From assembly GCF_026914265.1 (NCBI RefSeq), contig NC_069135.1, positions 26,392,167 through 26,456,166 of the forward strand: a stretch of 64,000 nucleotides of DNA, in the 5' to 3' direction. Made by a program: the position numbers and the translations under genes. This DNA comes from Mya arenaria (Eukaryota; Mollusca; Bivalvia; Myida; Myidae). Shown here piece by piece: positions 314 through 62,111 of the stretch; within the stretch, counting starts at the first letter, position 1, and each line of letters begins with the position of its first letter. The notes below the pieces were generated by a model, which saw only the letters and a program-made list of their open reading frames with translations, was not told where the DNA came from and ran no database searches.

Positions 314-607
314 CTATCTTGGAAATGTTCAGAACGTTATATTCTGTTTTTATCTGTGTCAAAGAGTCGTTGTAGCCATCTTTCTTTATGATGATGTCTG
401 TGCCAGTACATGTTGTATCAAGAATGAAAAAACCTGTCGAATTCGTCATTGCCAATGGTCGTGTCGGGGCGGCAGCAGCGAAAATTGATGCTCCAGTCAC
501 TGGCTTACTGGTAGATGCTGATAGCACGCGTCCTTTGATTGTTAAAGAACATTCACACGTGTCGCATTCACCATTCAGTGTCCCGACAGGACAGGTTTTC
601 GAACAAT
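314..607 (-). CDS. Gene A exon: Cys-rich segment plus CILP/carboxypeptidase-regulatory-like domain
   Basis: Minus-strand exon of 294 bp bounded by TTGCAG/AT and ATAG/GTAAC, phase 1 at both ends. It encodes 98 residues: a cysteine cluster (DCSKTCPVG, then CDTCEC), followed by a beta-sandwich-like stretch with the pattern GRVLSAST-KPVTGASI, a TNSTGFF turn and a GYNDS motif. This layout is typical of the cartilage intermediate layer protein and carboxypeptidase regulatory-like domain, where the G-F and GY positions are conserved. It follows the two TSP1 exons of the same gene in the same phase, so it would be the next extracellular module. The exon ends in an open donor, and the next exon must lie left of the window. 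Family assignment is by eye; a related beta-sandwich is possible. Confidence 0.7.
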
Positions 608-724
608 CTGCAATGAGTTCATAAATACTGAATTAACATATGTCTGATACCTGATATTTAAGTTGTGAATATACATTTAAAATTGGAAAAAGAACAGATA
701 TCTTAAATCCTTGAAAAATTAAAC

Positions 725-889
725 CTGGACAATCCCAAGTCGAACATCTCTGTTGCTGCAAATTTCCACCAACACAATCGATGTCGGAGGGATTGTTCTT
801 TTGGCAGTCTCTTGTACGCGTTTGAGCACCGCCGCCGCAGGATACGTCACAAGCGCCCCATGGAGCCCAGGTTATCCATTTTCCAAACA
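725..889 (-). CDS. Gene A exon: thrombospondin type 1 repeat (second)
   Basis: A 165 bp minus-strand exon, TTTCAG/TG at the acceptor and CCAG/GTTTAA at the donor, phase 1-1. The 55 residues show the TSP1 signature: W at WITWAPWGACDVSC (the W-x-x-W ladder), a CGGG turn, the R of RTRDC, then paired cysteines ending CSTWDCPG. Six cysteines are present, as expected for three disulphides. TSP1 modules are extracellular and bind glycans or proteins. The exon sits between the first TSP1 exon and the CILP-like exon and keeps the reading frame with both. No disabling change is visible. Confidence 0.85.
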
Positions 890-1932
890 CTGAAACATTA
901 CAGTTTGTTTGACAATATCATTAGAATTGAACTGTTATATATGACTATGCTATCTAAAATAACGTTTTATATTATTTTGTTTAGCAATCTGAGTACGATA
1001 TGTTTCGTTGACCTTTTATATTTAATCATACATAATGTATGTTTTGAACATAGCAACGAGCACATGATCATTTTAACAGCAACACATGTAGTTGTATATA
1101 AATTCTTTGTTAACCATGTATGTTAATACTTGAGTAACCTCAATCACATTCGACAATATGTAGTTATGCTACCTCATTATGAAAAGGGTCAAGAAGATGA
1201 GAGTCAATCGCCACACCGCATCAATTTAAAATATTAAAGCGTATAATTGTAGGCAAATTGGGTTAAAAAAGCAACATAAAACAAATATTAACTCTTTAAA
1301 TATGCAATGTTCTTTAGATTCTCTTTGTTAACTGTTATTTCAAATTATAAAGTAAGTAATGACCGAAGCACTATTGATGAAATGTACAAAATTGTATTTC
1401 AACCTTGATAGTTAGTAGTAACAAAAATAATAGCCATGCGTTTCCGTCACTGATGGAACAATCCGCTCTAGTGGCATATAACCATTTTTGAGTGCCCACA
1501 GGTCGGGTGATTTTTATTTTCGTCGGAAACATATGTTTTACTTTTATTGACAACAAATATTCCACAATATAAGATTACGTTTTTCGGTGAAATTGCATGT
1601 CCAAAGCAGTAAAAATAACAGCAAGGAATTTATAAATTTTGATATCTTCACTTTTCTATGGTTTCCGTATCGATGGACAAAAACGTTTTAGCTGTTACTG
1701 TGCCGGGTTGAAAAAAAACCAAATGATGTAAAAAAATGACACAAAATGTGTTGAATTTCGTGGTATGATCAAAACATACTTTACTCGTGATCACAGAAAA
1801 TTATGTTTAAAGTTTATTGCTTCCTGTTTTCAATAGGTTAATTAAATTTCGATCCTTCACCGATATTCAACAAATTTCTAGCATGACATAATTACGAATA
1901 CGAGATTACTAATACAGTGTAGCCAGCAATAC
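890..1932. other. Gene A intron between TSP1 exons
   Basis: No coding signal. From about 1110 to 1930 this intron is clearly related to 9955-10826 in copy B (shared landmarks: TTGAGTAA-CTCAATCACA near 1130, a GGTCGGGTG block near 1500, TTTCCGTAT-GATGGACA near 1660, CTCGTGATCACAG near 1785). About 1630-1800 also matches 20.40-20.67 kb in copy C. It is a good alignment guide for the duplication history. Confidence 0.6.
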
Positions 1933-2079
1933 CAGGACAAGGGGATGAAGTACAAATGTCGGTTTCTATGTAGTCGCCGATGCACGGACTTGCAATACAT
2001 TGACGGTATCGCTTGTGGATCCCTGATGCACAGGTAGCTGAGCACTGTGTCCAGTCACCCCACAGTGACCAGCTTCCGG
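1933..2079 (-). CDS. Gene A exon: thrombospondin type 1 repeat (first)
   Basis: A 147 bp minus-strand exon with TTTTACAG acceptor and CCTG/GTATTG donor, phase 1-1, encoding 49 residues. It begins GSWSLWGDWTQCSATCASG, the WxxWxxC..TC pattern of TSP1, continues with an RQC-type arginine/cysteine step and ends in CTSSPCPG. Near-identical exons occur at 10827-10973 and 16345-16491, which shows that this module was duplicated with its introns. Expected to lie in the ectodomain just beyond the stalk encoded by exon 1. Confidence 0.85.
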
Positions 2080-2629
2080 CTGTAAAATAATACAACACAT
2101 TTGAAGATGATTTTCATTTGAAAATGTGGAATTAAACATTGATAAAGCACAACTACAAAAACAAAATACTTTACACACACACATTGATAATTCAACTTGT
2201 GATTTGAAATGACAAACGCCATAGGCACCTGCAACAAAGAAAAGGGCATTTCTCGACACGACGATCACATATCCTAAAAATATCGCAAAATGAATAAAAC
2301 GAATGATAATTATTACATTTTGTAATTGCAATGACGTGATATTTCTACTGAAACAATGTCCGCACTCGACAGAACCAATGACATCCATAAACGCCTGTCA
2401 GGGTTCGGGAACCTTGTTATTCGAGAGGCAGATCAACCCGGAGTCCCGAGCAATGCGCCTAGCTAGGAAGGCTCGGAAAGTCGGATAGTAGGTATGGTTG
2501 TAGATTGGCTACGTTAAAGTACGGGGAAGGCTTTGAGAAAATGTCAGGCTGATCGGGGACTCATATATACTTAATGCTTCGTCCCATCTCGACGATCTAA
2601 GTTCCATCTAAAAGCTGTCTGGTCTGCTC
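2080..2629. other. Intron, no gene seen
   Basis: Intronic sequence of gene A. At 2390-2530 lies a GC-richer stretch (GGGTTCGGGAACC, AACCCGGAGTCCCG) that is not low-complexity and may be an insertion of a dispersed element. I could not assign it. Confidence 0.35.
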
Positions 2630-9954: not shown

Positions 9955-10826
9955 CATATATGGTAATGCTTGAGTAATCTCAATCACAATTGACAATAGG
10001 TAGTTGCAACCTCATTATAACTTTCTTAAATGAAAGAATTACTTTAAAGGTATATATGATTAAGATATTGTGTTTTGAATACAAGATAAGTGCTGCCAGT
10101 CATGTGGGTTATGTGCTGGATAAGGGTTAAAAAGATAAGAGTCAATCGCAACAACGCAAAAATTTATACATTTATGCGATAAAACTATGCAAATAGCTTT
10201 TAAAAAGCAATATAAAACAAATATTAACTCTGTAAATATCCGATGCTCTTCAAGTTCTGTTTGATTCAACTGTGATTTCAAATTATTGCACATCAAAGCG
10301 TAAATGAAATGACGGAAGCACCTTAAGTGTTATAAAGAATGATGGTTAAGGATAACAAAAATAATAATTATGCGGGCACATAATCAATTTTGAATGCCCT
10401 CAGGTCGGGTGTTTTCTTTTTTTCCGGAAACTTATGATACTTTTAATGACAACGTATGTTTCAGATGTCATATGTAAGATTGCGGTTTTCGGTGAAATAT
10501 CATATCAAAAGCAGTGAAAATAACAGCAGGTCATTTCTAAATGTTTATATCTTCACTGCACCATGGTTTCCGTTTTGACGGACACAAATATCTTAGCGTT
10601 AACTGTGCTGGGTTGAAAAAAACCAAAATGATGTCAAACTGGTGTTAAATTTCGGGGTATGATAAAAACGTATTTCACTCGTGATCACAGCAAATTATAT
10701 TTAAAGTTTTTTGCTTCCTGTTTTCGTTAGGCTAATTAGATCTCATTCCTACATCGAAATTCAACACATTTCTACCACAACATAATTACGAGTACGCGAT
10801 TACTTATACAATGTAGCTTGCTATAC

Positions 10827-10973
10827 CAGGACAAGGGGATGAAGTACACAATTCGGTTTGCATGTAGTCGCCGATGCACGGACTTGCAATGCATTGGCGG
10901 TATCGCTTGTGGATCCCTGAAGCACAGGTAGCTGAACACTGTGTCCAGTTACCCCATAGTGACCAGCTTCCGG
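10827..10973 (-). pseudogene. Copy B thrombospondin type 1 exon (relic)
   Basis: The exon is 147 bp with an intact TTTGCAG acceptor and CCTG/GTATAG donor and an open frame encoding AGSWSLWGNWTQCSATC onward, about nine-tenths identical to gene A's first TSP1 exon. The exon itself is not broken. It is called a relic because copy B's first exon has lost its frame and its membrane span and no second TSP1 or CILP-like exon is found downstream. Confidence 0.75.
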
Positions 10974-11383
10974 CTGCAAAATAATAAAATACATTAAAAG
11001 ATGATTTTCATGTCACAATGTGGAATCAAACATTGATGGAACACAACAACATAATACTTTACACACGCACATTGATAATTCGAACTGAGAACTGAAATGA
11101 CGAACGCCACGACAAGCCGCGTTACCTGGCAACGCGGACGCCCTCGGATCGGGTTTTTCTATCCGGACCGGAAACTCATGACGGATACTGTTATTTCAGC
11201 AGTGACTATAACGTTAATTGAAGCCTAATTTTTATTTTTTAAATTTGACTGCTGGGGCGGTTACATGATTTGATGTCAGATGGTCGCACTTTAAGGGATC
11301 ACTTTGCGGACATACACCGCACAACCCCAAAACATGTTGTTCTCATTTCGGCGTGTGTGTATGGGTCCTCCCAAAAGAAAACG

Positions 11384-11634
11384 TTATAAGTTAAAGGTAC
11401 ACTCTTTAAAACAAAGCTTTTTATCGACACTGTTTGGAATTAGATACTGGTTAAATGGTTTTATATACAACGCGTTTTCAATATGCACATTCACATTGTG
11501 GCAACTGAGATCTGTCGAAGACCTATCAATTATATTTAGATCAACATAATCATTTTCATGTTTAGAATGAAATAAATCTTGGTAGATATTCCCAAGACCA
11601 TTTTTTTTGGCGGGCACTCCCGTCTGTACTCCAT
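11384..11634 (-). pseudogene. Copy B exon 1 (ITAM-like segment, broken)
   Basis: The matching ATG at 11634 opens MEYRRECPPKK, then an A-run shifts the frame; the homologous sequence continues in another frame as NGLGNIYQDLFHSKHENDYVDL, with YQDL and YVDL still 8 residues apart. Homology with gene A ends near residue 62. The following sequence is unrelated and stops without a membrane span. Two defects, so not a working receptor exon. Confidence 0.75.
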
Positions 11635-12014
11635 GATGGGTTTTGGCGTCTAGTAAAAGCCTCAGTTTTATTGTTATTTTAAACAGGATTACGTACCATC
11701 TTAACAACAAATTAAATATCTTAAATAAATAATTCAGTTTGGCTTGAAATTACAAAGCTCTATTTTTGATTGGTTTTAAATCAACCAGGAAGAACTGCAA
11801 ATATTACCTCATGCAAATAAAAAACAACCTGTTCGATTGGTTCAAACCATGGTTATAAAGAATAATATGCACTATTTATTGCCAACGTAATTGTAACACA
11901 ATACGCTAAAACAACTTTACATTGTGCAGATTCAGTGCACATTCGGACGGAGGAGAGTTTGTCGACAGCAAACTCAATGCAATTGATCTTCTCCATTGTA
12001 TGTTGTGAACTTTT

Positions 12015-15303: not shown

Positions 15304-15683
15304 AAAAGTTCACAACATACAATGGAGAAGATCAATTGCATTGAGTTTGCTGTCGACAAACTCTCCTCCGTCCGAATGTGCACTGAATCTGCACAATGTA
15401 AAGTTGTTTTAGCGTATTGTGTTACAATTACGTTGGCAATAAATAGTGCATATTATTCTTTATAACCATGGTTTAAACCAATCGAACAGGTTGTTTTTTA
15501 TTTGCATGAGGTAATATTTGCAGTTCTTCCTGGTTGATTTAAAACCAATCAAAAATAGAGCTTTGTAATTTCAAGCCAAACTGAATTATTTATTTAAGAT
15601 ATTTAATTTGTTGTTAAGATGGTACGTAATCCTGTTTAAAATAACAATAAAACTGAGGTTTTTACTAGACGCCAAAACCCATC

Positions 15684-15934
15684 ATGGAGTACAGACGGGA
15701 TTGCCCGCCAAAAAAAATGGTCTTGGGAATATCTACCAAGATTTATTTCATTCTAAACATGAAAATGATTATGTTGATCTAAATATAATTGATAGGTCTT
15801 CGACAGATCTCAGTTGCCACAATGTGATTGTGCATATTGAAAACGCGTTGTATATAAAACCATTTAACCAGTATCTAATTCCAAACAGTGTCGATAAAAA
15901 GCTTTGTTTTAAAGAGTGTACCTTTAACTTATAA
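15684..15934 (+). pseudogene. Copy B' exon 1 (ITAM-like segment, broken)
   Basis: Mirror copy of 11384-11634 with the same A-run frame loss after MEYRRDCPPKK and the same missing membrane span, so the defects predate the inverted duplication. Substitutions relative to B include one in the CPP codon region and one in the segment after the second YxxL. The Tyr pair spacing is retained. Confidence 0.75.
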
Positions 15935-16344
15935 CGTTTTCTTTTGGGAGGACCCATACACACACGCCGAAATGAGAACAACATGTTTTGGGGTTGTGCG
16001 GTGTATGTCCGCAAAGTGATCCCTTAAAGTGCGACCATCTGACATCAAATCATGTAACCGCCCCAGCAGTCAAATTTAAAAAATAAAAATTAGGCTTCAA
16101 TTAACGTTATAGTCACTGCTGAAATAACAGTATCCGTCATGAGTTTCCGGTCCGGATAGAAAAACCCGATCCGAGGGCGTCCGCGTTGCCAGGTAACGCG
16201 GCTTGTCGTGGCGTTCGTCATTTCAGTTCTCAGTTCGAATTATCAATGTGCGTGTGTAAAGTATTATGTTGTTGTGTTCCATCAATGTTTGATTCCACAT
16301 TGTGACATGAAAATCATCTTTTAATGTATTTTATTATTTTGCAG

Positions 16345-16491
16345 CCGGAAGCTGGTCACTATGGGGTAACTGGACACAGTGTTCAGCTACCTGTGCTTCA
16401 GGGATCCACAAGCGATACCGCCAATGCATTGCAAGTCCGTGCATCGGCGACTACATGCAAACCGAATTGTGTACTTCATCCCCTTGTCCTG
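16345..16491 (+). pseudogene. Copy B' thrombospondin type 1 exon (relic)
   Basis: 147 bp between TTTTGCAG and CCTG/GTATAG, indistinguishable by eye from the 10827-10973 exon in inverse. Open frame, conserved W-x-x-W and cysteines. Orphaned like its partner. Confidence 0.75.
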
Positions 16492-19093
16492 GTATAGCAA
16501 GCTACATTGTATAAGTAATCGCGTACTCGTAATTATGTTGTGGTAGAAATGTGTTGAATTTCGATGTAGGAATGAGATCTAATTAGCCTAACGAAAACAG
16601 GAAGCAAAAAACTTTAAATATAATTTGCTGTGATCACGAGTGAAATACGTTTTTATCATACCCCGAAATTTAACACCAGTTTGACATCATTTTGGTTTTT
16701 TTCAACCCAGCACAGTTAACGCTAAGATATTTGTGTCCGTCAAAACGGAAACCATGGTGCAGTGAAGATATAAACATTTAGAAATGACCTGCTGTTATTT
16801 TCACTGCTTTTGATATGATATTTCACCGAAAACCGCAATCTTACATATGACATCTGAAACATACGTTGTCATTAAAAGTATCATAAGTTTCCGGAAAAAA
16901 AGAAAACACCCGACCTGAGGGCATTCAAAATTGATTATGTGCCCGCATAATTATTATTTTTGTTATCCTTAACCATCATTCTTTATAACACTTAAGGTGC
17001 TTCCGTCATTTCATTTACGCTTTGATGTGCAATAATTTGAAATCACAGTTGAATCAAACAGAACTTGAAGAGCATCGGATATTTACAGAGTTAATATTTG
17101 TTTTATATTGCTTTTTAAAAGCTATTTGCATAGTTTTATCGCATAAATGTATAAATTTTTGCGTTGTTGCGATTGACTCTTATCTTTTTAACCCTTATCC
17201 AGCACATAACCCACATGACTGGCAGCACTTATCTTGTATTCAAAACACAATATCTTAATCATATATACCTTTAAAGTAATTCTTTCATTTAAGAAAGTTA
17301 TAATGAGGTTGCAACTACCTATTGTCAATTGTGATTGAGATTACTCAAGCATTACCATATATGGTTATCAAAGAATTTAATATATGTTTTAGCAGACTAG
17401 CGATATTTGAAGCAAGGATGGACAACGGGTACATGAATTTATCAACAGCATTTTCAAATAAAATCGAGTTACTTTTAACTGGAGTGCAACTACATGCAAC
17501 TTTTTGTCAGTCGGAATATCACTATTTGTCATTATTCTAAACGTGACAACACCCTTTTCATGTTGTACTAGCTCTATAACAATTATGATTAATCACCTTT
17601 TGGGATGACTTCATAGTAGCGGGTTTTAGTGGATTTGGTAAGTTGCAAGTTCTTCATCATAACATAATCCTGTAACAACTATGGACTTTCTTATTTGTAT
17701 ACTAAGCAACACTTTTAACCAAACCCTGGAACGAAACGTTTATTTGCATTTCAGAGCGCAGAACCCCCCCCCCCCCCTCATCCCATTAAAAATTATACCC
17801 ACTGGGATTCACATATTCGGTAAAACAAGAAGAAGTAAGAGGGGGCGGGGATTATTTCTTAACAGCAAAACAAAACAACCAGTTAAGGTTGACATAATGA
17901 TAATAAAACAATCTAAAAGCTCTTTAACGGTTTGATAATAGAGATAAAACCCAGAGTGATGTGCCTTGTTGCTATTTTGGAAACTGACCAGTGAACAAAA
18001 TTGCTGCCTCAATCTTGCATTATTTCAACCGTGGCCAAAATGAAGTCTATTCAACAACGCCGCTGTTAATATGTATTCCAATGTGTAAATTGAAATGAAT
18101 GAAATCATTCAAGGTTGAAATATAACAAAATCGCTTTTGATGGAAAAAGGTAAAGAACAATCACAGAGCTTAGGAGAGCCAGCGTTTAGAAACATTTTAC
18201 TGACCGACGGAATTAGTTAAAGGTCCAAAAAATATGGTACCGACCAGGTTACAATTTTCCAAACCAACCTTTTAGTATACTTAAAGTCTATGTTACAATG
18301 GAGAATATAGATTTTTAAGTGCTTTGTATTATTTCTTTCCTCAATAAGTTTCATTCCGTTACAGATATAGGGTAAGGATTTTGGTGCAAAAATTTTGTTT
18401 CAGTAAGTGATCATTGTTAAATAGAAACCGAAGGTTTCAAAAACACACAAAAACAATGCTTATTATTTGCTATTTAGTCGGTTCAAGTTACTACTAAATG
18501 CTTAAAGGTCGTATAGCTGTTTATTCGTGAACAATAACGATACTGTTATATGACCTATAAATGGCGAGTCTAGACAGCCATCGACGAACCAATATACATG
18601 TCATATTCACTTGGGTTTTTCCAATAAGACTGATCTAAAAATAGAATTTAAAGCGATCGATATTTTTTTATTAATAGTTAGTCAATTTGTTTGTTCGCTA
18701 GAAAGGTAATGGGGAACCAATCTATTGATATTTCCGGAATCAAAATGACATTATGTTATCCTCTTGCAGATATGTTAGAAATTGTCATAATTATATTAAA
18801 ATACTTGTTGACTAGTTAGTTTTTGAATATGGTCATCTTCAATAGCTCACAGGTCCATTGTTGCATATTTAAGCATATGTCATTAACAAAATACATTACT
18901 AAGACGTATGGTAGTGAAGTGAAGTCAAGCCAAGTAAACAATTATTTAGTAGTTACGGGCCACCAGACCAAACAAAATGCATAACATACAACGTGAACAC
19001 AACATCATGAGTTGTGTCACGGTTGTTAATCGATACATGCATAGTATATTTATTAACACATGATAACTGCCCTTTAACTTTAACTATTTAAAT

Positions 19094-19821
19094 TCGTAGG
19101 AGAGTGTAAACATAGTTTGCTAGTGTGCGGGGATCTTCAGACTGATTTGTGCCTAAAAAGCTGTAAATATCTTTTGATTCCGTACCATCACGACATTAGA
19201 ATACCAATTAAAGAAGGAGTGCGTTCGCATGCTAAGAAATATATTTATGTCGCCAACATCTTGAGATATCCAGATATAACCAAATAACCAAAAAACATAT
19301 TTTTATATAAGTAGCCCAGCAAGCACGCCTATCTTCATCAAAAGACTTAAGCAATAAGTAACATTGTATGGGTACCTATTACTAGAAAGTCGAAAAATAC
19401 CCAATACAGTTAGAAAAATAGGATACGCACAACGGAAATATTCCACTTTCTCCAAGAATCATACATGTATTATTACTCTTATTTACACCGCTATGCTTCC
19501 TGCAAAATTCATTCTGTAAATATTCAATCTTAGGAATTAAAACATAGCCTCAAATTAGGTTTGGGTCTAATCATAGTATCAAACATTTTAAACAAGTCTC
19601 TTGTTGGAAAATAACCAACGGTTTTTGATAAAGTTTGATAGCAAAAATATCTTTTCAAGGATTGAGCTGGCATTTTGTCTTGAGCTGGTGTCCATGATGA
19701 GTTTGGATTAAACAGTTAACCCGAGGATTTATAAATATATGGGGTTTTTTAAATTTATATCACGAACGAACCATTTCTCATTATTTAGTAGAGGATCGCC
19801 ATTCCAAGCAACACTTCTTTC
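19094..19821 (-). pseudogene. Decayed LINE reverse transcriptase, right-arm copy
   Basis: Inverse copy of 7473-8200, reading SVAWNGDPLLNNEKWF on the minus strand. The FADD-box part of the relic (7220-7472) is absent here because it lies outside the inverted repeat, which places the outer breakpoint inside the LINE. Confidence 0.75.
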
Positions 19822-28582: not shown

Positions 28583-29036
28583 TTTTTCTCTCTGTGCTTT
28601 TGGATGTTGTAGTTATAATTTCTTCCGTTACTGCCCGTATTGAAGTCATCTCTGTGGAAATATCCAGCGTAGGAGGCGTCGTCGTTCTGATAATTCTTTC
28701 ATTTTCTGAGTTTTGTGAAATCAGTACAGCCACAATAGCCACAATGGCTACTACAATCGCAATTGAGCCCAATATAATTATCGTCTTTTTCGTGCTACTG
28801 ATTTTCTTTGCTGATGTCGCAGCTGCAGATCCTGCATTGGTGTCAAGGTATCTGGACCCTTTTTCATGCACAAGAATATATTTGTTTCGATAGTCCTCCT
28901 CTGACGACGATTTCAGTTCAACACCAATGAGTCCAGCGTAGGTGTTGTCGTTTTTAGTCCGAAAAAGATCCGTATAGACATTTTCACTGGGTTCTTTTAA
29001 TGTACTCCGCGGAGGACATTCTTTTCCGTTGTTCAT
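28583..29036 (-). CDS. Gene 2 exon 1: ITAM, membrane span, Ser/Thr stalk
   Basis: The start ATG at 29036 (MNNGKECPPRS) is chosen over upstream in-frame codons because it aligns with gene A's MEYGRECPPKK. Residues 18-36 form a canonical ITAM: Glu three residues before Tyr21 in YTDL, 8 residues, then Tyr33 in YAGL, at the same positions as gene A. KK pairs at 77-78 and 83-84 precede a clean span at 86-106 (IIILGSIAIVVAIVAIVAVL), predicting N-in type II topology. A Thr/Ile/Ser-rich stalk follows. The frame can run a few codons to a TAA, but AAAAA/GTAAG at 28583 is a good donor in phase 1, as in every other member, so splicing onward is likely. The unspliced product would be a 155-residue tail-anchored-like ITAM protein. 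Confidence 0.75.
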
Positions 29037-32102: not shown

Positions 32103-32724
32103 ATGTACAAAGACATTTCCAAAGATAGAATGAGCACCACAGAAAAGGACTATACAGATCTTGCTATTCGTGAAACGGACCATGTGTATATAGATGTTTC
32201 CCAAGATAGAATGAGCTCCCAAGAAAGGGACTATACAGATCTTGGTAATCGTGGAACAGAACATATGTATGGAAATATTTCCAAAGATGAAAAGAACGCA
32301 CCAGAAAATAACTATACAGATCTTACTGCTCGTGGAACGGAACATATGTATGGAGATATTTCCAAAGATGGAATTATCGTTCCTGAAAATGACTACACAA
32401 ATCTTGGTAATCGCAAAGCGGAACATATATATGGATCCTTGAATAAACATGTTGTAAATGATGAAGCGAAACCAGGGAGTGGTGCTTTCCTGACTGCAAA
32501 GATACGCTTGATCGCGTTTGTCTCCATCTTTGTTATGTGTTCGGTAACATCGGTTGTTGTTATTGTTTTGCTAACACAAAACTCGGGAGAAGAATCCACC
32601 ATATCAACACAAAGCACAAGTGATTACATCACCGGCACAACTAATGATATGGAGACAACCACAAATTTAAACAAAAAGACTTTGAGCGCCACACAATTTC
32701 TAGCGCCGAACACGACAAATGAAG
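32103..32724 (+). CDS. Gene 3 exon 1: four tandem ITAM-like modules, membrane span, stalk
   Basis: From the first in-frame ATG (32103), the N-terminal 113 residues are tandem 27-residue repeats. Tyr pairs 17/29, 44/56, 71/83 and 98/110 sit in YTDL or YTNL followed, after exactly 8 residues, by YIDV, YGNI, YGDI and YGSL; each first Tyr has Glu at -3. Three pairs fit the strict ITAM consensus, and the first ends in V. A TAKIR-type basic edge then precedes a span at 136-157 (LIAFVSIFVMCSVTSVVVIVLL), followed by a Ser/Thr-rich stalk with TTN glycosylation-type sites. Predicted type II. Ends ACAAATGAAG/GTAAAT, phase 1. ITAM tyrosines in animals are phosphorylated by Src kinases and bind Syk tandem SH2 domains; that role here is inferred. 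An upstream start in another exon is not excluded. Confidence 0.8.
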
Positions 32725-33687
32725 GTAAATACAAACTCAACATACTATTTAAGGCAATAATATGGTACGTTGCAGAAAAGGGTAGTAGCAAAAGTAATAT
32801 ATATTGAATACTTTTTCTCGTTTTTTCCCTCGAAAAAACAACAACGGATGGGTATCACAATTCTAAAAATAAGTGGTATAGACCAAATGTTTCGAGGTTC
32901 CTGAGAAGATGTGACGCCTGCGTAAAAAGGCAGACATTAGGGATCATGTTCGGCGTCGACGTCCGCTCTTTTACTTAAGTGTTTCTAATTCAACCATTAC
33001 CAGTGGAACAAGAATCTTTATAAGCATTATATCATGACTAGGTTTGATCAAAAGCCATCCTATTGAGCAATACAGTTTTGCAAATACAAATTTTACACTC
33101 TAAAAATCATTTGTCTAATCTTCACCAAACTTGGAATCAAATCTTTTTGGGCATAATATCTTCCGAATTCAATTAGGGTTTGGCACTTCATTTTTCATAA
33201 TTTAAGAAAAAACTCAATGTTTGTGCTCTTTAACTTGAGTCTTTACAATTTCATATCTTACTAGATACTGACACTTGATTTGACAAAATTTAAGAGAAAA
33301 AAAGAAGGAAGCAAGAGGGATGGTTTAACATTATATTGTGTTACCTTTTTAAAATCATTTTTGCCTAGATACGTAAAGACATCGAAGTCAACTTAGCACC
33401 TATCAGTTGTTGTTCACTTAATAGTAAAGTCAGGGAAGGAAATACATTTTTTCAGTGCTTTATTGAAAAATATCAGTTGATTATAACCTGAATAACTCAC
33501 CCAATTTCAAACAGTGAGTTTGTCGATATCTAAGTTCACTGTTTCTCCTATATTCATCCATATCTCTTTGAATAACAAAAGCTAAACGAACACATTGCTT
33601 GGAAGAAAGTATTTGTTTACTCTTTGTTCATATTCGTTGAAATGTATTGCTATCTTCACTGTATCAAACGCACAATTTCAGTTTCAG
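32725..33687. other. Gene 3 intron 1
   Basis: No coding signal. About 32930-33200 (GACGTCCGCTC, CTTCACCAAACTTGGAATCAAATC, AATTAGGGTTTGGCACTT) looks like a dispersed bivalve repeat. Confidence 0.4.
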
Positions 33688-33759
33688 TTACGACAGGACA
33701 GTTACCAGCGAAAACAACTGAATTAACAACACCTCCTACACCAACCGCGATTATTGAAG
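33688..33759 (+). CDS. Gene 3 exon 2: Thr/Pro-rich stalk segment
   Basis: A 72 bp exon between TTTCAG (an alternative acceptor lies 6 bp upstream, also in phase) and GAAG/GTACAC, phase 1-1. It adds 24 residues, TTGQLPAKTTELTTPPTPT and so on, typical of an O-glycosylated stalk. Its length and phase let it be skipped without frame change. Confidence 0.65.
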
Positions 33760-36700
33760 GTACACTTTGTAACTAAATAAATCACAGTCATTCAATAATA
33801 TTTTGTTTAGAATTATAGAACGTATCAGAAAATTGGTAGAAATGTATATACCTATTCCGCCACTAAATTCTGATTAAACAGAAGATAACACGAATGAGTA
33901 TGATTTTTTTTTCACGAAAAAATAATTGCATTGTGTGTCTAAGATTTCAAAACTAGTATTACTAATTGACCAATAATCTGAAACTAAGCATCTGCTTTAA
34001 TAATTCGCTTCAGTGTTTTTAAAAATAAATCTTCTAATTCTTGCGAGGCAGAGCTTTTTACCTTCTCTGCATCAGACCAATATCCGTGTATCTTTGAATA
34101 TTCTACAACATTCGACACTTAAACATCTGAATAACTTCCCCAAGAACACGGATATCTTCAAGGAGCCTGCCTTTGAGACAAAAAGACGTCTCATTCTAAC
34201 ATACTAGGAGACTACGACTACGTTAACCAAGTCATGTTAACAAAAACGTAAGCTACTAATCTGACAATACCTCTCTCGCGGGAGCAAATCGTCACCAAAA
34301 CTCTCTATGCGTGCGGTGTAATTCGCTACGTCATCTAATGACGTCACTTCTTGGTCCCCTAGTAAGCTTGAGGTTTAATTACTTCATGTTAGACATCTAC
34401 AAGTGATCGCTTACCAAACGCTATTCGCTTATCATGTATACGCCGTAGCCATCACTGCTTGCGTCTGATCATATTAAACTCAGTCGTTTAAACCACAGTA
34501 ACCTGGTATTTGGACAACATTTTTGGCCAGTCGAGCTACCTGATTTGAGCGATTGGGTCCCTAGGGTAATCTCTTGGACTGAGAATCGTAAAAAAAATAC
34601 GTTCTAGTACACTATGATACACATAAATAAATAAATAATCCACTTTTGGTCGTTTATTTTTGCATATTTTGTTTTATATTTCAAACAATCTTTATCATTC
34701 ACAAGTTATGAAGGTTAGCAGATTTCGGATTGAGACATTTTTTTTTGATAAAACAACTGTATACGTCAGGTGCATGTTCAGAAGGAAGTTTTCCCCAAGG
34801 TGCAAAAGCTGAACAAGAACAAACTAATTGCGTTTTCGCAATTTTCTTCGGTTACTCTGCCAAAAATACTGTTTATTTACCGACCGGGGATATGTTTACC
34901 TTGTGACTGGTACCCGTCTGTGCGTAAAGCCAAAAAGCCGTGCCAGGTTTGGCCCGTGTGCTTACTCAAAAGTACTGGCGAAGATCTGTGAGTCGGTATA
35001 TAAACAGTATAGTTTAAGCTTAATTAAATAAGAGTATTATGTATTTATGTGCGACTTATCCAGATACGGTTTCAAATTTTTTATGCATGTGGTCTGAAAT
35101 TTCGGTAACACATTCATAGCCACACTGCAATTGCCTGCGTGATTTATATAGACACAATTAACAAGCCATTGGGGAGAAATTTATATTTGGATATGATTGT
35201 TTTTAATGATATTTAATAGTCGTCATAGTGGTTCGTATCATTGTAATTTCTGAATACGTAAATATGAATGGATTAATTTACAATCAACCTCCAAGAGTCT
35301 TGACTTATGATGTCTGCGAGTTCCAGAAAGCTGTGTAGCACATATATAAGTTGGTAGTGACACATATCCCCATATATACCCGAGTTGAAACCTAGAATTT
35401 ACTTGGTGTGCTTTAAAAGCCTTTGTACTTTTGTTTAAAACATGCGGCATAGTTATCCGAAAAACAACAGTTTTCTTTTGTCTATTTATGTTTCGTGAGA
35501 ATATATCCCTCCGCAGTTTAGAGCAATATCGGTTCAGGTGAATACTGGCATAGTTTTCATATGCATGCTTATACCAATTTATACCGGCTCTTTCAAATGG
35601 ATCTGGTTGTCATGTAGGGCATTCCATAGCTCCTTATCCATAGATGGCCTCTGAAGCAAAGTGTTTAGATATAGCTTTTCAATGGCAAATCAAACCAAAA
35701 TACGTTCGCATAATTTTGTATGGAAAATGTAAATATATTTGTTTAAATCAATTATTGCGCAGTTCTCCAAGATGCGCAAAAATGATGGACTCCGTTGAAA
35801 ATGTAAATTTATGAACCATTTTCTTTTTGTGGTCTTTGAAATTCACCTTCTTTTTCATTTAACGCGATAACGGTGCATTTGTATTGGTTGTTCTCATATA
35901 GGTCAATGTTAAGATCATACGCCAATAATTATACGGATCTGAATTTCAAGTATTCTAAAAATGAGTAAAATTATGCTTTTCAACCTAGAGCTTGAAAGCA
36001 TTTGATTTTCTAAAATGCAGTAGACCTTCCAAAATATTAAACCTCTCTTAAATAATTTTCAAAAGAACATGCTTTATTTGTCCCTGGTAATTTCATCGCT
36101 TTACAAATGTCATCATTTGTAAATGTAGTGTTGGGCTCTTCTGTTGAAGTGTCACAATATGTGTATTTGATATTTGTCAGTCCCTTCATAATTTTGTTTT
36201 CACAAAACCATGGCCTTCTATACTCAAAAAGGAACTACTGTAGTATATTAATGTGTTCGCTTCCATCGTTCGTTGGTGACCGTCGAAACATTTTCCCAAC
36301 TTCCTTTACGTTTATCTTAATTATTATAGCACTCATTTTTGTGCTTGTGACGGATAATACTTTACCTGAAGTAATTCATTTCGACTTTCATTATATTTTG
36401 TTCAAAGTGTATATGTGTTAAAACTGGTTAAACATATTTCATGCATCACGACATTCTTGATTTAACCATGATATCATAGTGTTGTCGCTTAATATAAATG
36501 CATGTATTTCTATCATTTTAATGCGCATTTCAAAGAGCTTCTTTCCTTCAGAACGAGCTTAAAGAACGCACAAGTTTGAAACATGTCACCCGAATTACAA
36601 TAATTTCATTTCATTTTTATTATGTGTACAAAAATTGCATCTCAATATCTAGGCTTAAGTCTTATATATTCAGTCGTTAAAACTTTCAGATCAAAATAAC

Positions 36701-36989
36701 ATGGAACGTGAATAGAGAAAACATCGTGATATTAAAGTTGTTAATATATTCAAAATCCGAACCTTTAGTTAATAGATAATCTAACGAGTTTTCTCCGTTG
36801 TGCGTGCATTATATTGGCTTACCTTTGTCAGCGTAACTTCCAAGACATCCGGCGCAACCATGTAAGCCCTGAGCTTAGCAAGGCTTCACAAAAATGGTTT
36901 GACTTGGTTTGATTTATTTAAACACTTCCCCGGTGAAACATTATCAATATCTACTCCCAAGGTATGATTATTTGTCGCAACATCGGCAT
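33760..36989. other. Gene 3 intron 2, no exon recognised
   Basis: Open frames at 34.0-34.2, 34.8-35.0 and 36.1-36.4 kb lack family resemblance, codon regularity or credible splice context. Confidence 0.4.
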
Positions 36990-37300
36990 TTTACCAGATT
37001 TAAGAGTAGTCTGAATGTTGAACTGAATTTGGTCTTGAATGTACAACATTGCTCTTGTCAACTTTACAGTTTGAAGTGTACCAAGAATTTAGAGTTGTCA
37101 ACACCATTTGCAGATTTCGTTTATGTTCTGCTATAAGTACAATACCTTCATTGTCTACGCCAATACATGTTCCTACACTTAAACTTATTGCCAAGTTATT
37201 AATATTAGGACCAAATAATATTGTTGACAACGAACAGCCCTGTCGGATGCCAGTTGAACTATTCCGTGTAGTGACTATTAATACGAACACATGACGAAAT
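36990..37300 (-). pseudogene. LINE reverse transcriptase relic inside gene 3 intron
   Basis: Minus strand reads STGIRQGCSLSTILFGPNIN followed by NLAISL, then EGIVLIAEHKRNLQMVLTTLNSW, and KVDKSNVVHSR. This is the GIRQGCSLSP-ILF to YADDIVLIA to LN-W-VN-KSKV order of non-LTR reverse transcriptases; a deletion has removed the YADD catalytic box. A different LINE subfamily from the one at 7.2-8.2 kb. Confidence 0.75.
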
Positions 37301-37974
37301 ATCCTGACCACAAAAAATAACTGTTCATTTTTATTGCGAGTGTAACAATATGTGTATTTGATATTTGTCAGACTTGACAAGTGATATATTGTGCTACGTT
37401 TCCTCATTTTTCAGAGTACACAAAATTACAAAAGAATTCGATTTCCTCGATAGCCTGAAATCGACACAAATCAAAACAATCAGTCTTCTAAAAATCTAAT
37501 GAGACAAGGATGTTTATCAAACAAACAGTTCTGATTAATTCATTGGTTCTAATCAGCTCTTAAAAGCCAAGCGTACAATAAAACTGCTAAACTAGCCTAC
37601 GTATATGTTAGTACTTTTCGCAGCAAAATTTGTAAATTTCTATTTTGACATCGTTTACTTAAGACATTCAATAGTTAAAGCACTGCTTATAAGTTGAATG
37701 TTGAATGAACACTTTTTCAAAATTATAATTTATCGATAGACGTGTAAGTAATATTTATCACTTTTTCAAGTCATACTAAAATCAAAAGTAAATAATTAAA
37801 ATTTGTGTATTTAAAGGCAATTATCACCAAAATGTGAGACATTAAATCAAGTTATAATGGCATAATCTAGTAATAACAGTCAAAACCCCAAGAATACACT
37901 GAAAAAAGAGAGAAGAAATCCAAAATTATAAGAGAACGGTCTTTAAAAGTAATTTTATGCCATTTTATATTCAG

Positions 37975-38687
37975 GTTCGATTTCAAGCTGGGTGGATTGG
38001 ACATCTCGATATATACCGGTACAACTTTGTTCTCATTTTGCTTCAAGTCCTCCTTGGGAGCTAGCGGCTCTTTGTCGTCTTGCATGGTATCCATACAAAA
38101 ATGAAGATGGATACACAAAAGATGGCTATAAAGTTTGTAAAGCAAAGTTCAAAGTAAGTCTTGGTGAAGGATATCTACTCGCTTCAGGGCAATTCATCTC
38201 TCTTAAAGTAACAAGCTATGGTGGAAAAGAGTCTGCAATAGCAAACACAACTCTTGGTGTTTTAGAATATGACATAGGTCGTATCGACGGTGATAATATT
38301 ATCTGTGTTGAGTATAAATGCAGCGGAATGTACGATCCGGGTTTTCGAAATAACTTTGATAATACAGAGGTTAAAGTAATTCTTGAATATAACAATAGTG
38401 AAATTCGGTGCGTAGTTGCTGAGGAATCAAAAGATCTACTGAATTTGAATGGTATCACACAAGTAAACCGAAGCGATGGCATATACGAGTTCGTTGCACC
38501 AGACATATACGGCTCAAGCAATGGCTTGTACTCGGCAACATCTGGGTTAATCGGCGAGGTCAATAGCGTCGAAGAGCTTGACATCTTACATCAAGAGTCA
38601 AATCTGAGATGCCTGTCTTCAGAACAAACGACAGAGAATAACGATCCTGTTGATGGGGGATATGCCGCTCATTTTACCTGCTTCTGA
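37975..38687 (+). CDS. Gene 3 exon 3: cysteine-containing ectodomain, terminal exon
   Basis: Acceptor TTATATTCAG/GT in phase 1 and stop TGA at 38685-38687 give 237 codons; together with exons 1 and 2 the coding length is exactly 469 codons (468 residues plus stop). It starts GSISSWVDWTSRYIP, reminiscent of the W-x-x-W beginning of TSP1, but then leaves that family: LCRLAWYPYKNEDGY, a beta-rich middle, ICVEYKCSGMYDPGF and a C-terminal half ending HFTCF. Cysteines are about nine and no C-terminal anchor is seen, as expected for the outside end of a type II protein. I do not recognise the domain. An AATTAAA near 38748 may serve as polyadenylation signal. Confidence 0.75.
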
Positions 38688-38821
38688 TGTTGCTTGATTT
38701 ATTTTGACAACATTTATTTCTGCTATTCTTGCTGATGTTATATTTTGAATTAAAACACGAGTTCGTTAAACATGCTATTTACAATGAAGTACACATCTGT
38801 CAGTCTGCAACTACTCATCTG

Positions 38822-38970
38822 CGGTGAAGTGAGCCTGCAATACCTTACATAACTTTTGGGTGCTTTGAATACGACGTAAATCCAATGATAACATTCTCTG
38901 TGTTGAGTTCAAATGCAGCGGAGTGTATAATCCGGGCTTTGGACATAACTTTGACTCTAACTTGGCACAA
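38822..38970 (+). pseudogene. Partial duplicate of gene 3 exon 3
   Basis: CTGCAATA-C, ACTTTTGGGTGCTTTGAATACGAC, TGTGTTGAGTTCAAATGCAGCGGAGTGTA and AATCCGGGCTTTGGACATAACTTTGA follow 38233-38365 of the real exon, with a deletion and frame loss. It lies 135 bp beyond the stop codon, so an extra copy of this exon once stood in tandem. Confidence 0.75.
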
Positions 38971-41338
38971 GTATACTAAGAAGTCATTGGAAATTGTCAA
39001 GTTTTTAAGTGTTTTACAAATAGGAAAAACAAGACGTAGTCAGTTATCAGACAACTCAATATTTGCCCTCGTATGAACCTCTACCTGTCCAATCATAAAA
39101 AATGCCCCATTTGTCAAATTTGAGCTGTGGCTATTCAACAATTAATAAACAACTTCCAATATATACACATGACTTTGCTATCTAAAACATTTTTATTTCA
39201 GTACTTGTCAATAACTTGATGCCGGATAGTGTGAAATCATCAATGTTCGTTGGACATAAATGTTCGTGGTTTTCGTGGGTTGGGTGATCCACGAATTCAA
39301 GAACCAACGAAACACAGACCCTTTATTCACTTTTTCAATTACCATGTTATGTACATACTCTATTATATTCTATACAGAGGATGCAGTATACAGCGGTACA
39401 CGGTGTAAATACCGAACTTACTGTATATCTTACTATTATTGTTTTGTTAATATATTATATCAAATTAATATTAAACCAAATCAATCATTATGTTTTTTAT
39501 GAACCAACTGACAAAAACACGTGCTCAAACGTGTGCTGTTCATAAAAATCTCCAGGTTTACAAGATGTGCGTGTTGAGTGTCGGTACACGTTCTTTTCTT
39601 TAATGAAATATTTATACCCGGGTATGCGCAATACAAGGATATTCTCGGAGCCCGGGTCGCAGTTGGACCCGTTTTCAACCATGCCCGAAGTGCCATTGCG
39701 ATTTGAACGTAAGACTTTATTAAGGTTCTTAAAATGGTCACATTTAGTAAGTCTTTGCCATGTATACGGATATAGGGAAATTGACCCCGATTGATTAAGG
39801 TTAACCCGAAAAACTAATACCGACGCCAACAGTGGCTATGTGACAGCGCTCGATATCTGGCCCGATAACGGCATGGAGCATATTTTCCTAAACTGGGTTC
39901 GCGTTTGCCTCTCTTTACGATTTTCATTTTTAATCTGTTCAAGCAGATCATTTTATTTAGATTTTTTAAAATAATACATTATATACAGTCGCAAATTTCG
40001 AGCTTACGAACGTTCTTTGCGCCGCAAAATGATAAACAGATAATCGCCGAATCATGCAAAAACACTGCATAAATGTGTTACTAAAACTTACTATATATAG
40101 TAACATTTGTATTAACATTTAATATTGACTATATCCTCATGGTTTGTGCACGAATATTAAACTGAATTGTTCGAGACGCCCTTTTGAGCTGCACTTATTT
40201 ATTTCTGAACATATTAGTATATTACAAAATAGTTCACATTTTAGAATTAAAAACGATGCTGTTAACAAAGCTGTTAGCTTTCACAAAGTTCTGGACAATC
40301 GGCTTAGTGTTGGTTTATTAACAAGAGTTGTATAAAATTGATAAACTCTTATTGTCGAATGACTATGAGGGGCAATTTTTCTTTCTCTCTTATTGCATTC
40401 AGAACTAAATTGTTTGAAATAAAGTGACTACACACAAGATGGTCCAAAATCGGCAAATACAGTTTTTCCTCAAATCAAGCCTAGAATTGTCATTACGAAC
40501 TAGTATGAGGTCGATAATACAACACTTCACATTATTTAATGAATATTTCGTCGCTGTCTCAGCTGTGTTTACCCGTTTAAAAATAGCGCGTAATGGTTTT
40601 CGAGTTTATAGTGCGTAAGTAAGCATGTGAAAGTCACGGTCATAGGTCTGCTGGAGTTTTTTAAAAATTTCCAAATCGACCACGGTCATTGGTCTTCTCG
40701 TATGGAAATGTGTATGTTGGAAGAATAAATGAACATGATTTATACATAGCATACATGGGGTGTAATGTTTGTAACAAAGTAAATAAGCATTTTACTTTGT
40801 TTGAATTGATCATGAATAATTGGCTGTTTTGAAAATTGAATTAAAAATATTATCCTGTTTGGTGCTAGTATGACATAATTTATTATATTAAAATATGAAT
40901 GTTTTCATTTGCTGGACAAAATGTCCTTTATTAACTATTTACAATAATGAAACATTTTCAGTGCGCCTTGTTTGTTAATACTAAAACTATTTGGTTGAGA
41001 AAAAGGAACAAAATATTATAATCACTGAATATTTATTTTCTGAAAATGGTTGGTTGACTTAACCATACTGCATACAGATATACATATTTGCAAAATACAA
41101 AGTATGTAAAAATAATTCAATTTTAAGAGATCTAGACGGCCTATGAGATGTGCAGTGGCCCTGATGATTGGCGACGCAAAGAGCAATTATTGTGCTTCAG
41201 CGGCACATCCTGAATAGTGAAAAAAAGTAAAACCCGATTCGGAAATGTAGCGAAAATATAACTCATGGAAAAAAGCAAGTTATGTTATATCGTATTTTGG
41301 TATCGACGAATTATTAGTAGTGACTAAATTGTCAGGAC
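38971..41338. other. Intergenic, no gene seen
   Basis: AT-rich. A GC-richer patch at 39.6-39.7 kb (CCCGGGTATGCGCAATAC, GAGCCCGGGTCGCAG) may be an inserted repeat. Reading frames on both strands there lack support. Confidence 0.4.
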
Positions 41339-57379: not shown

Positions 57380-59117
57380 CACTTTGCCGAATTTCTAATT
57401 GGCCACCATATAAAATATGATCCTTTGCGTAATTTTAAATCAATAAATCTCATTTTTGATTCTTTTTGTATTGTACACACCAATCTATCGATTTACTTAA
57501 ATGAAACACGTAATCATGTAAAAAATCATCCATGCGGAACGGTCGGTGCGAAAATAGGCTATGTGCTCGAATATCTCGTGCACGGCAGGGTGGTTGTCGA
57601 CTATGGTGGGAATGAATTCTTCGTGGATTTTCTTTTATGAAAACATTAAATATGGCGAGAATGAGCATTGCAGAACGCGCTCAAGCCGTCGGAATGATTC
57701 GTGCCGGCACCCCCATCAGACAGGTATGTTACGCGTCGTTATAAAAGTTGCAACATGTGCTATTATTTGTTATTAAGTGCAAAATATTGACAGAAACATG
57801 TTTATATATTAATCTGTTGGTGATTCTTATTTACGAAAAAACACTACCACGGGTGGTCAACAATACAATGCCTGTGTAATATCGGATTGACCAATCGTAC
57901 AATGAAATACATTGTAATTTTTTAACATTCACCTTTGAATCAACTTTCAAGTGATAACAGAGCTTTCAAGTGGATTTTATTATTTTCCAGATTGCACGTT
58001 TTTTTAATAGGCGACATTTCAGTATTGAAACTCTTTGGGCGAAATTCGTACAAACCAGAAGTGTAGCAGATCTCCTACGACGCCCCAAAAGAAGAGTGAC
58101 GACTCCCCAACAGGACATTCAAATTGTCAATGACCACCTTCAGGATCGTTTTACTACGGCAGCGACGACGGCCCGTTATACAGTGGGCAGACACAACCGC
58201 GCAATCCACCCACAGACAGTGCGCAATCGCCGTCGGGTTCCGTCTTTTACTGCAAGACACAGGCAGGCAAGATTATTGTGGGTCAGGCGTCATTTGGGAT
58301 TTACAAGGGCGGACTGCGCCAATGTTTAACTTGTTGATGAGACACGCATCACACTACGTGGGAATTACAGACGTGCTCGCGTTTATGGCCGTCGGGGTGA
58401 ACAACGAGAACTGTCTGGTAGAATTGGATAACTGTGGGTGGTTCCATTATGCTGTGGGCTGGAGTTTCCATGCACACGAAAACTCCAATTGTACCCATTC
58501 AAGGAAACATGAACACGATGAGGTATCAAAATGACGTCGTTCGACCGGTTCTTCTACCTCATATCCGCGCCAATCGCGGTATGATGTTGGTACAGGATAA
58601 AGCACCATGTCACGCGGCTAGAAGCACACAAGTTATGCTTGTAGCAAACAACGTGCGAACACTCCAATGGCCTGCAAAAAGTCCAGATTTAAATCCAATA
58701 GAACACGTGTGGGACCTTTTAAAGCGCAAGGTGCGTGCCCAGCCGCTGCAACCAAAACTCAGGGTGCTCAAGCGTGTTATTCATCAGATTTGGGCAGCCA
58801 TTCCACAACAGTATCTTCATAGATACGGTATATCAATGAGGACAAGGTGCCTCGCTGTAATTGCCGCAGCAGGTGGACATACAAAGTATTAAAAAAGTCA
58901 AATACGACGTGATTTGATCTTGCAGTTTTTGTTTTAAGGGTGTCAATGTTAACCCTCTCTGTTAATTTTATTCCTGGCTCATATTTTAATGAAGTTTTGT
59001 TTTACCTATTAGGAATAAATCGTATTAACCTTATATTTGGTTATTTGTATTTTTCTCCGAATAATTTTCCTAAAATATGATAAAAACTAGGTGGCCAATT
59101 AGAAATTCGTCGTACTG
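57380..59117 (+). mobile_element. Tc1-type DNA transposon
   Basis: Terminal inverted repeats: left 57380-57407 and right 59090-59117. The inner 20 bp (CGAATTTCTAATTGGCCACC) is identical and the outer few bases differ, the right end giving CAGT as in Tc1 elements. TA dinucleotides stand at 57378-57379 and 59118-59119, the expected target duplication. Length 1738 bp. It encodes the transposase relic listed next. Confidence 0.9.
57652..58892 (+). pseudogene. Tc1-family DD34E transposase, broken
   Basis: Starts MARMSIAERAQAVGMIRAGTPIRQ at 57652-57723; after a GT...AG interval of 267 bp it resumes at 57991 with IARFFNRRHFSIETLW (first helix-turn-helix) and an RRPKRR linker into a second DNA-binding part. 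The catalytic domain follows: VDETRITL near 58333 (first Asp), QDKAPCH near 58610 (second Asp) and PDLNPIEHVW near 58690, with 34 residues between the second Asp and the Glu. The triad is present, but an in-frame TAA at 58327 and a frameshift near 58429 disable the frame. The 267-bp interval is either an intron or an insertion; most Tc1 transposases lack introns. Ends at TAA 58890. Confidence 0.88.
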
Positions 59118-61465: not shown

Positions 61466-61651
61466 CATACTAGTATATTACTATTCTTTATAGATGTGTC
61501 ATGACCAAAGCCTTGATATTGCCAATATTGCTAATAAAACTTGAAACTTTAATCTTCCATCTAGATCAAATGTTTAACAAAATATGTATAGCTGACAAGC
61601 ATAGTGAATTGATGTCAAATATTTAATGATGTATGATAAAATATACTTAAC

Positions 61652-62111
61652 CATTATCAATAAGAGCGCCGATGATTGTGTGATGAACGTTCGTGATATC
61701 ATCGTTTTCGCAGTCGATGTATGTTTTGTTTTTCAGTATATCTGGTACATCACACGGTTCGATTTTCAGAGGAATAATACTGAAGTCTTCTCTAATTTCC
61801 TGATGTATTGCCTCTTTTAATTCATGTTGTGCAAAGTCACTTTTTGAAAAGTCTTCCGACAAGACTACAAGCATATGTAGGCTTGCATTGATTTTGTCAG
61901 CCATGTTTTCAAATATTCCATGTCCAGGAGTAAAATCTCTTTCATGGTTGCAACATTTTACGCCTCCCTTTTCCAAATTTTCCACGATCATACGAACTTC
62001 GTTTACGTTTTCGCTAGCGTAACAAACAAACACATGATAATCCTTTTCGGGTGGTAACTGCGGTATATAAACATTATTGTGAGTTGTTACCCCCGTATCG
62101 TAAGAAGCCAT
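61652..62111 (-). CDS. TIR-domain protein, exon 1
   Basis: From ATG at 62111 (MASYDTGV) the exon gives 153 residues ending ALIDNG/GTTAAG, phase 1. TIR motifs: box 1 YHVFVCYAS (25-33), box 2 RDFTPGHGI (58-66) and box 3-like DFAQHELKEA (92-101). Glu97 falls where NADase-type TIR domains carry the catalytic Glu, though many signalling TIRs share a Glu there. The box 3 Phe-Trp is Phe-Ala. An upstream in-frame ATG at 62216 would add a hydrophobic MPWRLVIFTLINLAVF leader; a cytosolic TIR makes the inner ATG more likely. With exons 2-4 the product is 311 residues: TIR, linker, two spans. Likely a membrane-tethered innate-immunity adaptor; partner unknown. Confidence 0.88.

What the first reader, a model, noticed from the sequence alone, without database searches (positions are those of the whole stretch)
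32103..38687. Gene 3: a predicted type II receptor with four tandem ITAM-like modules
Seen: four YTDL/YTNL-x8-YxxI/L/V pairs, each with Glu at -3, in exact 27-residue repeats, ahead of one membrane span with basic residues on the N side, a Thr-rich stalk and a cysteine-containing terminal exon; three exons sum to an exact reading frame. Known: ITAMs recruit Syk-family kinases; in vertebrates multi-ITAM chains such as CD3-zeta have three and place them C-terminally. Inference: an amplified-output immune receptor of inverse topology that I do not know from any described family.
Basis: partly seen in the sequence, partly recalled or inferred. Interest (0 to 1): 0.92.

Follow-up and report, generated by a model that had tools for sequence, protein, structure and literature searches.

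The report
Clam matrix-protein receptor with four ITAMs
A soft-shell clam gene appears to encode a cell-surface protein that joins the tail piece of a cartilage-type matrix protein, outside the cell, to four copies of an immune-type activation motif inside it, which would be an unusual route from sensing matrix or damage to a strong signal; nothing about its function has been tested.

Summary
The sequence observation holds. At 32103-38687 lies a Mya arenaria gene, catalogued by NCBI as LOC128217914 (uncharacterized). It has four YTDL/YTNL-x8-YxxI/L/V modules 81 nt apart, one membrane span with N-side positive charge, a Thr-rich stalk and a cysteine-bearing last exon. Two corrections: in NCBI isoform X2, exon 2 starts 6 nt earlier, and a donor after 38153 removes most of the last exon. 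The last exon is the C-terminal domain of cartilage intermediate layer protein (CILP). Two other Mya genes on this chromosome (one beside it, inferred from exons; one 1 Mb away, NCBI-named) are CILP-like proteins with the same type II layout and a single ITAM with the same x8 spacing. Six Mercenaria/Ruditapes CILP-like proteins share the topology; none has an ITAM. So the ITAM was probably gained in the Mya lineage (or lost in venerids) and quadrupled in a shortened CILP. Against function: the closest copy shows 17 nonsynonymous to 1 synonymous change, its CILP exon is broken, and no four-ITAM relative was found. Best reading: a CILP-derived type II receptor feeding Syk-type kinases (0.55). 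A Mya Syk was not identified. N-terminal ITAM-type tails are known in type II Dectin-1-cluster receptors.

The parts
32103..32724 (+). exon 1: cytoplasmic four-ITAM tail, membrane span, start of Thr-rich stalk; ATG at 32103
   Evidence: same start and sequence in NCBI P0001
32151..32198 (+). ITAM module 1, YTDLAIRETDHVYIDV
32232..32279 (+). ITAM module 2, YTDLGNRGTEHMYGNI
32313..32360 (+). ITAM module 3, YTDLTARGTEHMYGDI
32394..32441 (+). ITAM module 4, YTNLGNRKAEHIYGSL
32508..32570 (+). single membrane span, residues 136-156, N-side positive
   Evidence: hydropathy
37975..38687 (+). exon 3, long form: CILP C-terminal domain (PF23599) to TGA; ATTAAA signal 64 nt from the stop codon's first base
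37975..38153 (+). exon 3, short form of NCBI isoform X2 (donor GTAAGT at 38154)
39202..39219 (+). coding part of last exon of NCBI isoform X2 (YLSIT, stop)
38797..39021 (+). decayed second fragment of the CILP domain, with three stops, lying in the isoform-X2 intron
   Evidence: L012
28602..29036 (-). first exon of the neighbouring single-ITAM CILP-like gene (YTDLFRTKNDNTYAGL, span, Thr stalk)
10828..10980 (-). TSP1 exon of the CILP-like gene on the minus strand (or of a duplicate)
1934..2086 (-). TSP1 exon of the CILP-like gene on the minus strand
315..890 (-). second TSP1 and carboxypeptidase-regulatory-like exons of the same gene, whose Ig and CILP exons lie left of the window

Best explanation
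The gene encodes a shortened, CILP-derived type II membrane receptor of the soft-shell clam. Shown by sequence: an N-terminal tail with four ITAM-like modules, one span, a Thr-rich and probably O-glycosylated stalk, and (long form) one extracellular CILP C-terminal domain. Shown by comparison: its relatives are CILP-like proteins (two TSP1, carboxypeptidase-regulatory-like, Ig, CILP domains) with the same topology and, in Mya only among the proteins seen here, a single ITAM with the same x8 spacing. Inferred: the ectodomain binds a matrix, damage or microbial ligand and clusters; Src-type kinases phosphorylate the tyrosines; a tandem-SH2 kinase of the Syk family docks, so that one chain can seat up to four kinases and give a stronger or more graded output than its one-ITAM siblings. 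The splice form lacking most of the CILP domain would act as a ligand-blind regulator or is a by-product.
For: Motifs, spacing and topology. CILP_C domain. Family context: the paralogue at C14:27479455-27489519 is NCBI 'CILP 1-like isoform X1' with YTNL-x8-YTEL, and the window's 29036(-) exon has YTDL-x8-YAGL. The three strict ITAM residues all fall among the 7 of 27 invariant columns of the four repeats (chance 0.012; 0.007 with the second copy added). 0 of 9 Tyr changed, and 1 of 18 Tyr/+3 codons changed conservatively, between the two copies. The cytoplasmic parts of the two single-ITAM paralogues give omega 0.40 (whole first exon 0.72). CILP_C exon omega about 0.45 on this gene's branch, against 0.61 and 0.32 on its sisters'. 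Syk/Zap70 homologues go with CARD-CC/Bcl10 in invertebrates, by implication in molluscs (PMC5978004, passages), and oyster has Syk (PMC4883820, one passage).
Against: Exon 1 of the two copies differs by 17 nonsynonymous and 1 synonymous change, as expected without purifying selection (one-sided P=0.07 against omega 1; omega 0.5 rejected, P=0.004); dN 0.036 lies between the two neighbouring noncoding divergences, 0.031 and 0.043. Between repeat units 1-3 omega is 1.2-3.8; only pairs with unit 4 fall below 1 (0.53-0.73). The B copies' CILP exons carry deletions, one of them also a stop. The only NCBI product seen lacks most of the CILP domain, and Pfam finds no domain in it. No four-ITAM relative elsewhere: 1 protein, itself, of 376 candidates at E<=10. 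I did not find a Mya Syk: 71 SH2 matches, 13 read, none Syk-like by eye. No expression or phosphorylation data.
Confidence: 0.55

Rival explanations
1. A decaying relic: a truncated duplicate of a CILP-like gene whose ITAM repeat expanded by slippage and is no longer under selection. It is transcribed but has no receptor function.
For: N:S of 17:1 between the two copies, close to neutral divergence; both B copies share a deletion of about 115 nt in the CILP exon and have further losses; TSP1, Ig and the other CILP domains are absent from this gene; the NCBI isoform is truncated; no orthologue found.
Against: A 207-codon exon is open in both copies with all nine Tyr kept; the full 236-aa CILP_C frame is intact here and its branch omega is 0.45; an ATTAAA signal follows the long-form stop at nearly the same distance as in L005, though B5 has none there.
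Confidence: 0.22
2. A membrane protein whose tyrosine motifs work mainly as YxxPhi sorting signals (AP-2) or as docking sites for adaptors such as Grb2, not as paired ITAMs for a Syk-type kinase.
For: All 9 Tyr are YxxPhi, including an unpaired Tyr2, and two read YxN (YTNL, YGNI). Sorting and adaptor motif rules are recalled, not from a call.
Against: Pairing at exactly x8 is kept in all four units, in both copies and in the single-ITAM paralogues; sorting signals need no fixed pairing. Glu at -3 and Leu at +3 match the ITAM consensus (recalled).
Confidence: 0.2

Closest known systems
Mya arenaria 'cartilage intermediate layer protein 1-like isoform X1' (P0002) and the minus-strand CILP-like gene starting at window 29036
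   Same: N-terminal tail with YxxL-x8-YxxL, one span, Thr stalk, CILP_C at the end; same chromosome, 1 Mb away and adjacent
   Different: One ITAM instead of four; P0002/B5 carries two TSP1, carboxypeptidase-regulatory-like (below cut-off), Ig and CILP domains that this gene lacks
Venerid CILP-like proteins (P0003-P0008, Mercenaria and Ruditapes)
   Same: Span near the N terminus, Thr-rich stalk, CILP-type ectodomain; CILP_C in 5 of 6, not in P0008
   Different: 0 of 6 have an ITAM; their tails have 1-2 Tyr, and one (P0006) has a single YxxPhi
Dectin-1 cluster type II lectin receptors with hemITAM (Dectin-1, CLEC-2, CLEC9A)
   Same: Type II, intracellular activation motif in the N-terminal part, stalk, C-terminal ectodomain (PMC11624271 passages)
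   Different: C-type lectin domain and half an ITAM; here a CILP domain and four full ITAM-like pairs
CD3-zeta and other multi-ITAM vertebrate chains
   Same: Several ITAMs in one chain (recalled)
   Different: Type I, three ITAMs, almost no ectodomain (recalled)
ITAM/ITIM-bearing allorecognition receptors of Hydractinia and Botryllus
   Same: Invertebrate receptors with ITAM-type motifs and a Syk-type pathway (PMC12065747 passages)
   Different: The Botryllus receptors in those passages have Ig/Sushi regions; no CILP domain is mentioned in the passages read

Membership tests
CILP | CILP C-terminal domain PF23599 | tested here: met
   33.1 bits, cut-off 27; 34.9 bits in genome scan
CILP | TSP1, Ig, CILP_5th and CILP domains upstream | tested here: not met
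   no such match in the 468-aa model at E<=1; present in paralogue B5, its CILP match just below cut-off
CILP | secreted by a cleaved signal peptide, as in vertebrates (recalled) | tested here: inconclusive
   the strongest hydrophobic segment is at 136-156 behind a charged tail; 6 of 6 venerid relatives also have an N-terminal span; no signal-peptide predictor was run
ITAM receptor | YxxL/I-x6-8-YxxL/I in the cytoplasmic part | tested here: met
   4 matches with L/I/V allowed; modules 2-4 fit strictly, module 1 ends in Val
ITAM receptor | ITAM conserved by selection | tested here: inconclusive
   single-ITAM paralogues' tails omega 0.40; four-ITAM copies 17 N: 1 S; unit-to-unit omega 0.53-3.8; repeat invariance P 0.012
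ITAM receptor | tandem-SH2 Syk-type kinase in the same genome | tested here: inconclusive
   71 SH2 matches, 13 read, none Syk-like by eye; Syk reported in oyster
ITAM receptor | phosphorylation and kinase recruitment | not testable with these tools
   needs biochemistry
Type II hemITAM lectin receptors | type II topology with N-terminal tyrosine motif | tested here: met
   (hydropathy and charge only)
Type II hemITAM lectin receptors | C-type lectin-like domain | tested here: not met
   no lectin match at E<=1
Draper/MEGF10-type engulfment receptors | EMI and EGF repeats (recalled) | tested here: not met
   no such match at E<=1

The most novel reading that the evidence does not exclude
In the Mya lineage a matrix protein family (CILP) was turned into a set of ITAM receptors. 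ITAM dosage (one to four per chain) and stalk length (one exon here, twelve tandem 351-bp stalk-exon units in the copy at C14:27.42 Mb) then evolved by tandem duplication while recognition domains were pared down. This would be the first in-line four-ITAM receptor known to me and a non-lectin, non-Ig route into Syk signalling.
Probability: 0.38. Interest if true: 0.82.

Novelty: new variant of a known kind. Interest (0 to 1): 0.6.

Why it matters
Invertebrate Syk/Zap70 homologues go with the CARD-CC/Bcl10 complex, which molluscs have, and ITAM-containing upstream receptors have been inferred from that pattern (PMC5978004, passages). None of the listings of my paper searches (titles and abstract starts only; open-licence papers only, long lists cut) names a bivalve CILP receptor with ITAMs. 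If this reading holds, Mya offers a concrete receptor family for that pathway, with natural variation in ITAM number from one to four. That makes the question of what ITAM multiplicity does testable outside vertebrates. It would also link matrix sensing to immune-type signalling.

Full report
What the sequence shows. The window is G000:C14:26392167-26456166 of a 1.216-Gb genome in 18 contigs; NCBI's name for the protein gives Mya arenaria. Exons 32103-32724, 33688-33759 and 37975-38687 join in frame to 468 aa with GT-AG borders. The tail holds YTDLAIRETDHVYIDV, YTDLGNRGTEHMYGNI, YTDLTARGTEHMYGDI and YTNLGNRKAEHIYGSL, 81 nt apart, each with Glu at -3. All 9 Tyr before the span are in YxxPhi; 20,000 shuffles of the tail never gave four ITAM matches. 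The units are duplicates of one another, so the sensible question is whether the motif was kept. Of 27 columns, 7 are identical in all four units and both Tyr and the first +3 Leu are among them (chance 0.012; with the second copy 6 columns, 0.007). The span is residues 136-156 by hydropathy, net +2 before and -2 after.

Known gene and its splice form. The full-protein search returned one protein, NCBI LOC128217914 isoform X2, 298 aa (4665 candidates). Fitted to the DNA it confirms the ATG and the borders 32724, 33759 and 37975. It starts exon 2 at 33682 and leaves exon 3 after 38153 for an 18-nt coding exon at 39202. The donor lies in codons that also read AAAGTAAG in both full CILP paralogues and in two broken copies. 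In paralogue P0002 the frame is read through. Whether isoform X1 of this gene keeps the long exon I could not see.

The last exon is a CILP domain. Pfam gives CILP_C, 33.1 bits over a cut-off of 27, residues 267-467. A genome scan with that family gave four matches: this exon, two CILP genes on C14 and one on C4. A protein search of the genome with the exon gave 12 matches, itself included; the best others are 65% (C14:27488797) and 64% (C14:26388631) identical.

The family. Paralogue B5 (C14:27479455-27489519, about 1 Mb away) was assembled from seven phase-compatible exons. It matches NCBI 'CILP 1-like isoform X1' (96% identity, 100% coverage), which has extra stalk. Its domains are TSP1 x2, carboxypeptidase-regulatory-like (below cut-off), Ig, CILP_5th, CILP (just below cut-off) and CILP_C. 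Its tail has one ITAM, YTNLFQTRDDHTYTEL. The minus-strand exon at 29036 has YTDLFRTKNDNTYAGL, 52% identical to B5's first exon over 128 aa. TSP1, Ig and CILP exons lie downstream of it on the minus strand, running out of the window, so it is probably the first exon of a second full gene; its transcript was not seen, and a frame-broken exon of the same kind at 4842(-) is an alternative. Of the 11 proteins found with B5, six are Mercenaria or Ruditapes CILP-like proteins. All six have a span near the N terminus and a Thr-rich stalk, and none has an ITAM; 5 of 6 have CILP_C. A hemichordate relative (P0011) also has an N-terminal hydrophobic segment, and a fish one (P0010) shows no such span; P0009 was left out of that scan. 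Mya is in Myida, Mercenaria in Venerida. The simplest order is: type II CILP first, ITAM gained in the Mya line, then four modules in a shortened gene. Loss in venerids is not excluded.

Selection, for and against. Single-ITAM tails of B5 and the 29036 exon: dN 0.284, dS 0.714, omega 0.40; whole first exon 0.72; against the exon at 4842 dS is saturated. CILP_C exon: pairwise omega 0.37-0.51; by three-point subtraction 0.45 on this gene's branch, 0.61 on B5's, 0.32 on L005's. The four-ITAM exon against its copy at 27423948(-): 97.1% DNA identity, 17 nonsynonymous and 1 synonymous differences; noncoding neighbours 95.7% and 96.9%. Omega 0.5 is rejected (P=0.004) and omega 1 is not (P=0.07). Between repeat units omega is 2.3, 3.8 and 1.2 among units 1-3 and 0.53-0.73 against unit 4. 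Of 18 Tyr/+3 codons one changed between copies, V to I; the span has no change. So there is no sign of purifying selection on the exon as a whole between these two copies. That fits either relaxed constraint in one copy or diversification.

The copies at 27.36 and 27.42 Mb. Both lack about 115 nt at the same place in the CILP exon and have further losses; one stop was counted in the 27.42-Mb copy, and a decayed downstream fragment in both carries three. The 27.42-Mb copy has the stalk exon in 12 tandem units of about 351 bp by BLAST. A strict splice-site pattern recovered 11 of them, all open and a multiple of three.

Mechanism. By analogy with ITAM receptors, clustering by an extracellular ligand, Src-type phosphorylation and Syk-type docking are inferred. 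Support from print: Syk/Zap70 homologues in invertebrates go with CARD-CC/Bcl10, by implication in molluscs (PMC5978004, passages); oyster has Syk (PMC4883820, one passage). In this genome 71 SH2 matches were listed. I read 13 of them; by recalled family sequence they look like Csk-type (3), SHP-type (1), RASA1-type (2), SH2B-type (2), STAT-type (2), SOCS-type (2) and one unclear, none Syk. This is inconclusive.

Verdict. Real, well observed and more than chance; filed as a new variant of a known kind. It is a CILP_C-bearing, type II, four-ITAM protein, not a member of CILP proper (upstream domains absent) nor of the lectin hemITAM receptors (no lectin domain). Function is inferred only.

Noticed in passing
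window 28602-29036 (-) with exons at 10980, 2086, 890 (-) and left of the window to about -3538: Probable full CILP-like gene with a single ITAM tail; NCBI record not seen.
   Followed up: partly
window 4842 (-): Another first exon of the family (YDDLFHSKHENEYVDL); the ITAM and the membrane span lie in different frames.
   Followed up: partly
window 7473-12014 and 15304-19821: Inverted repeat of 4.5 kb, 99.3% identical, each arm carrying an ITAM exon fragment (11584-, 15734+).
   Followed up: no
G000:C14:27418514-27422553: Twelve tandem 351-bp units, each with the Thr-rich stalk exon: a stalk-length minisatellite made of exons.
   Followed up: partly
genome-wide: Many SH2 matches come as pairs of equal or near-equal score 1-2 Mb apart on one chromosome, often inverted: recent segmental duplication or uncollapsed haplotypes in the assembly.
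   Followed up: no
window 61650-62240 (-): TIR-domain protein (PF13676, 70 bits), with a copy at about 27463371-27464081 in the duplicated block.
   Followed up: no
window 58422-58889 (+): Transposase piece with DDE_3 domain.
   Followed up: no
G000:C3:87265490-87268472: Three SH2 exons in tandem within 3 kb, all Csk-like by eye.
   Followed up: no
G000:C14:26456404-26458854: Long cysteine-rich open frames with a C-terminal hydrophobic stretch just right of the window, with relatives at 27.38 and 27.46 Mb.
   Followed up: no
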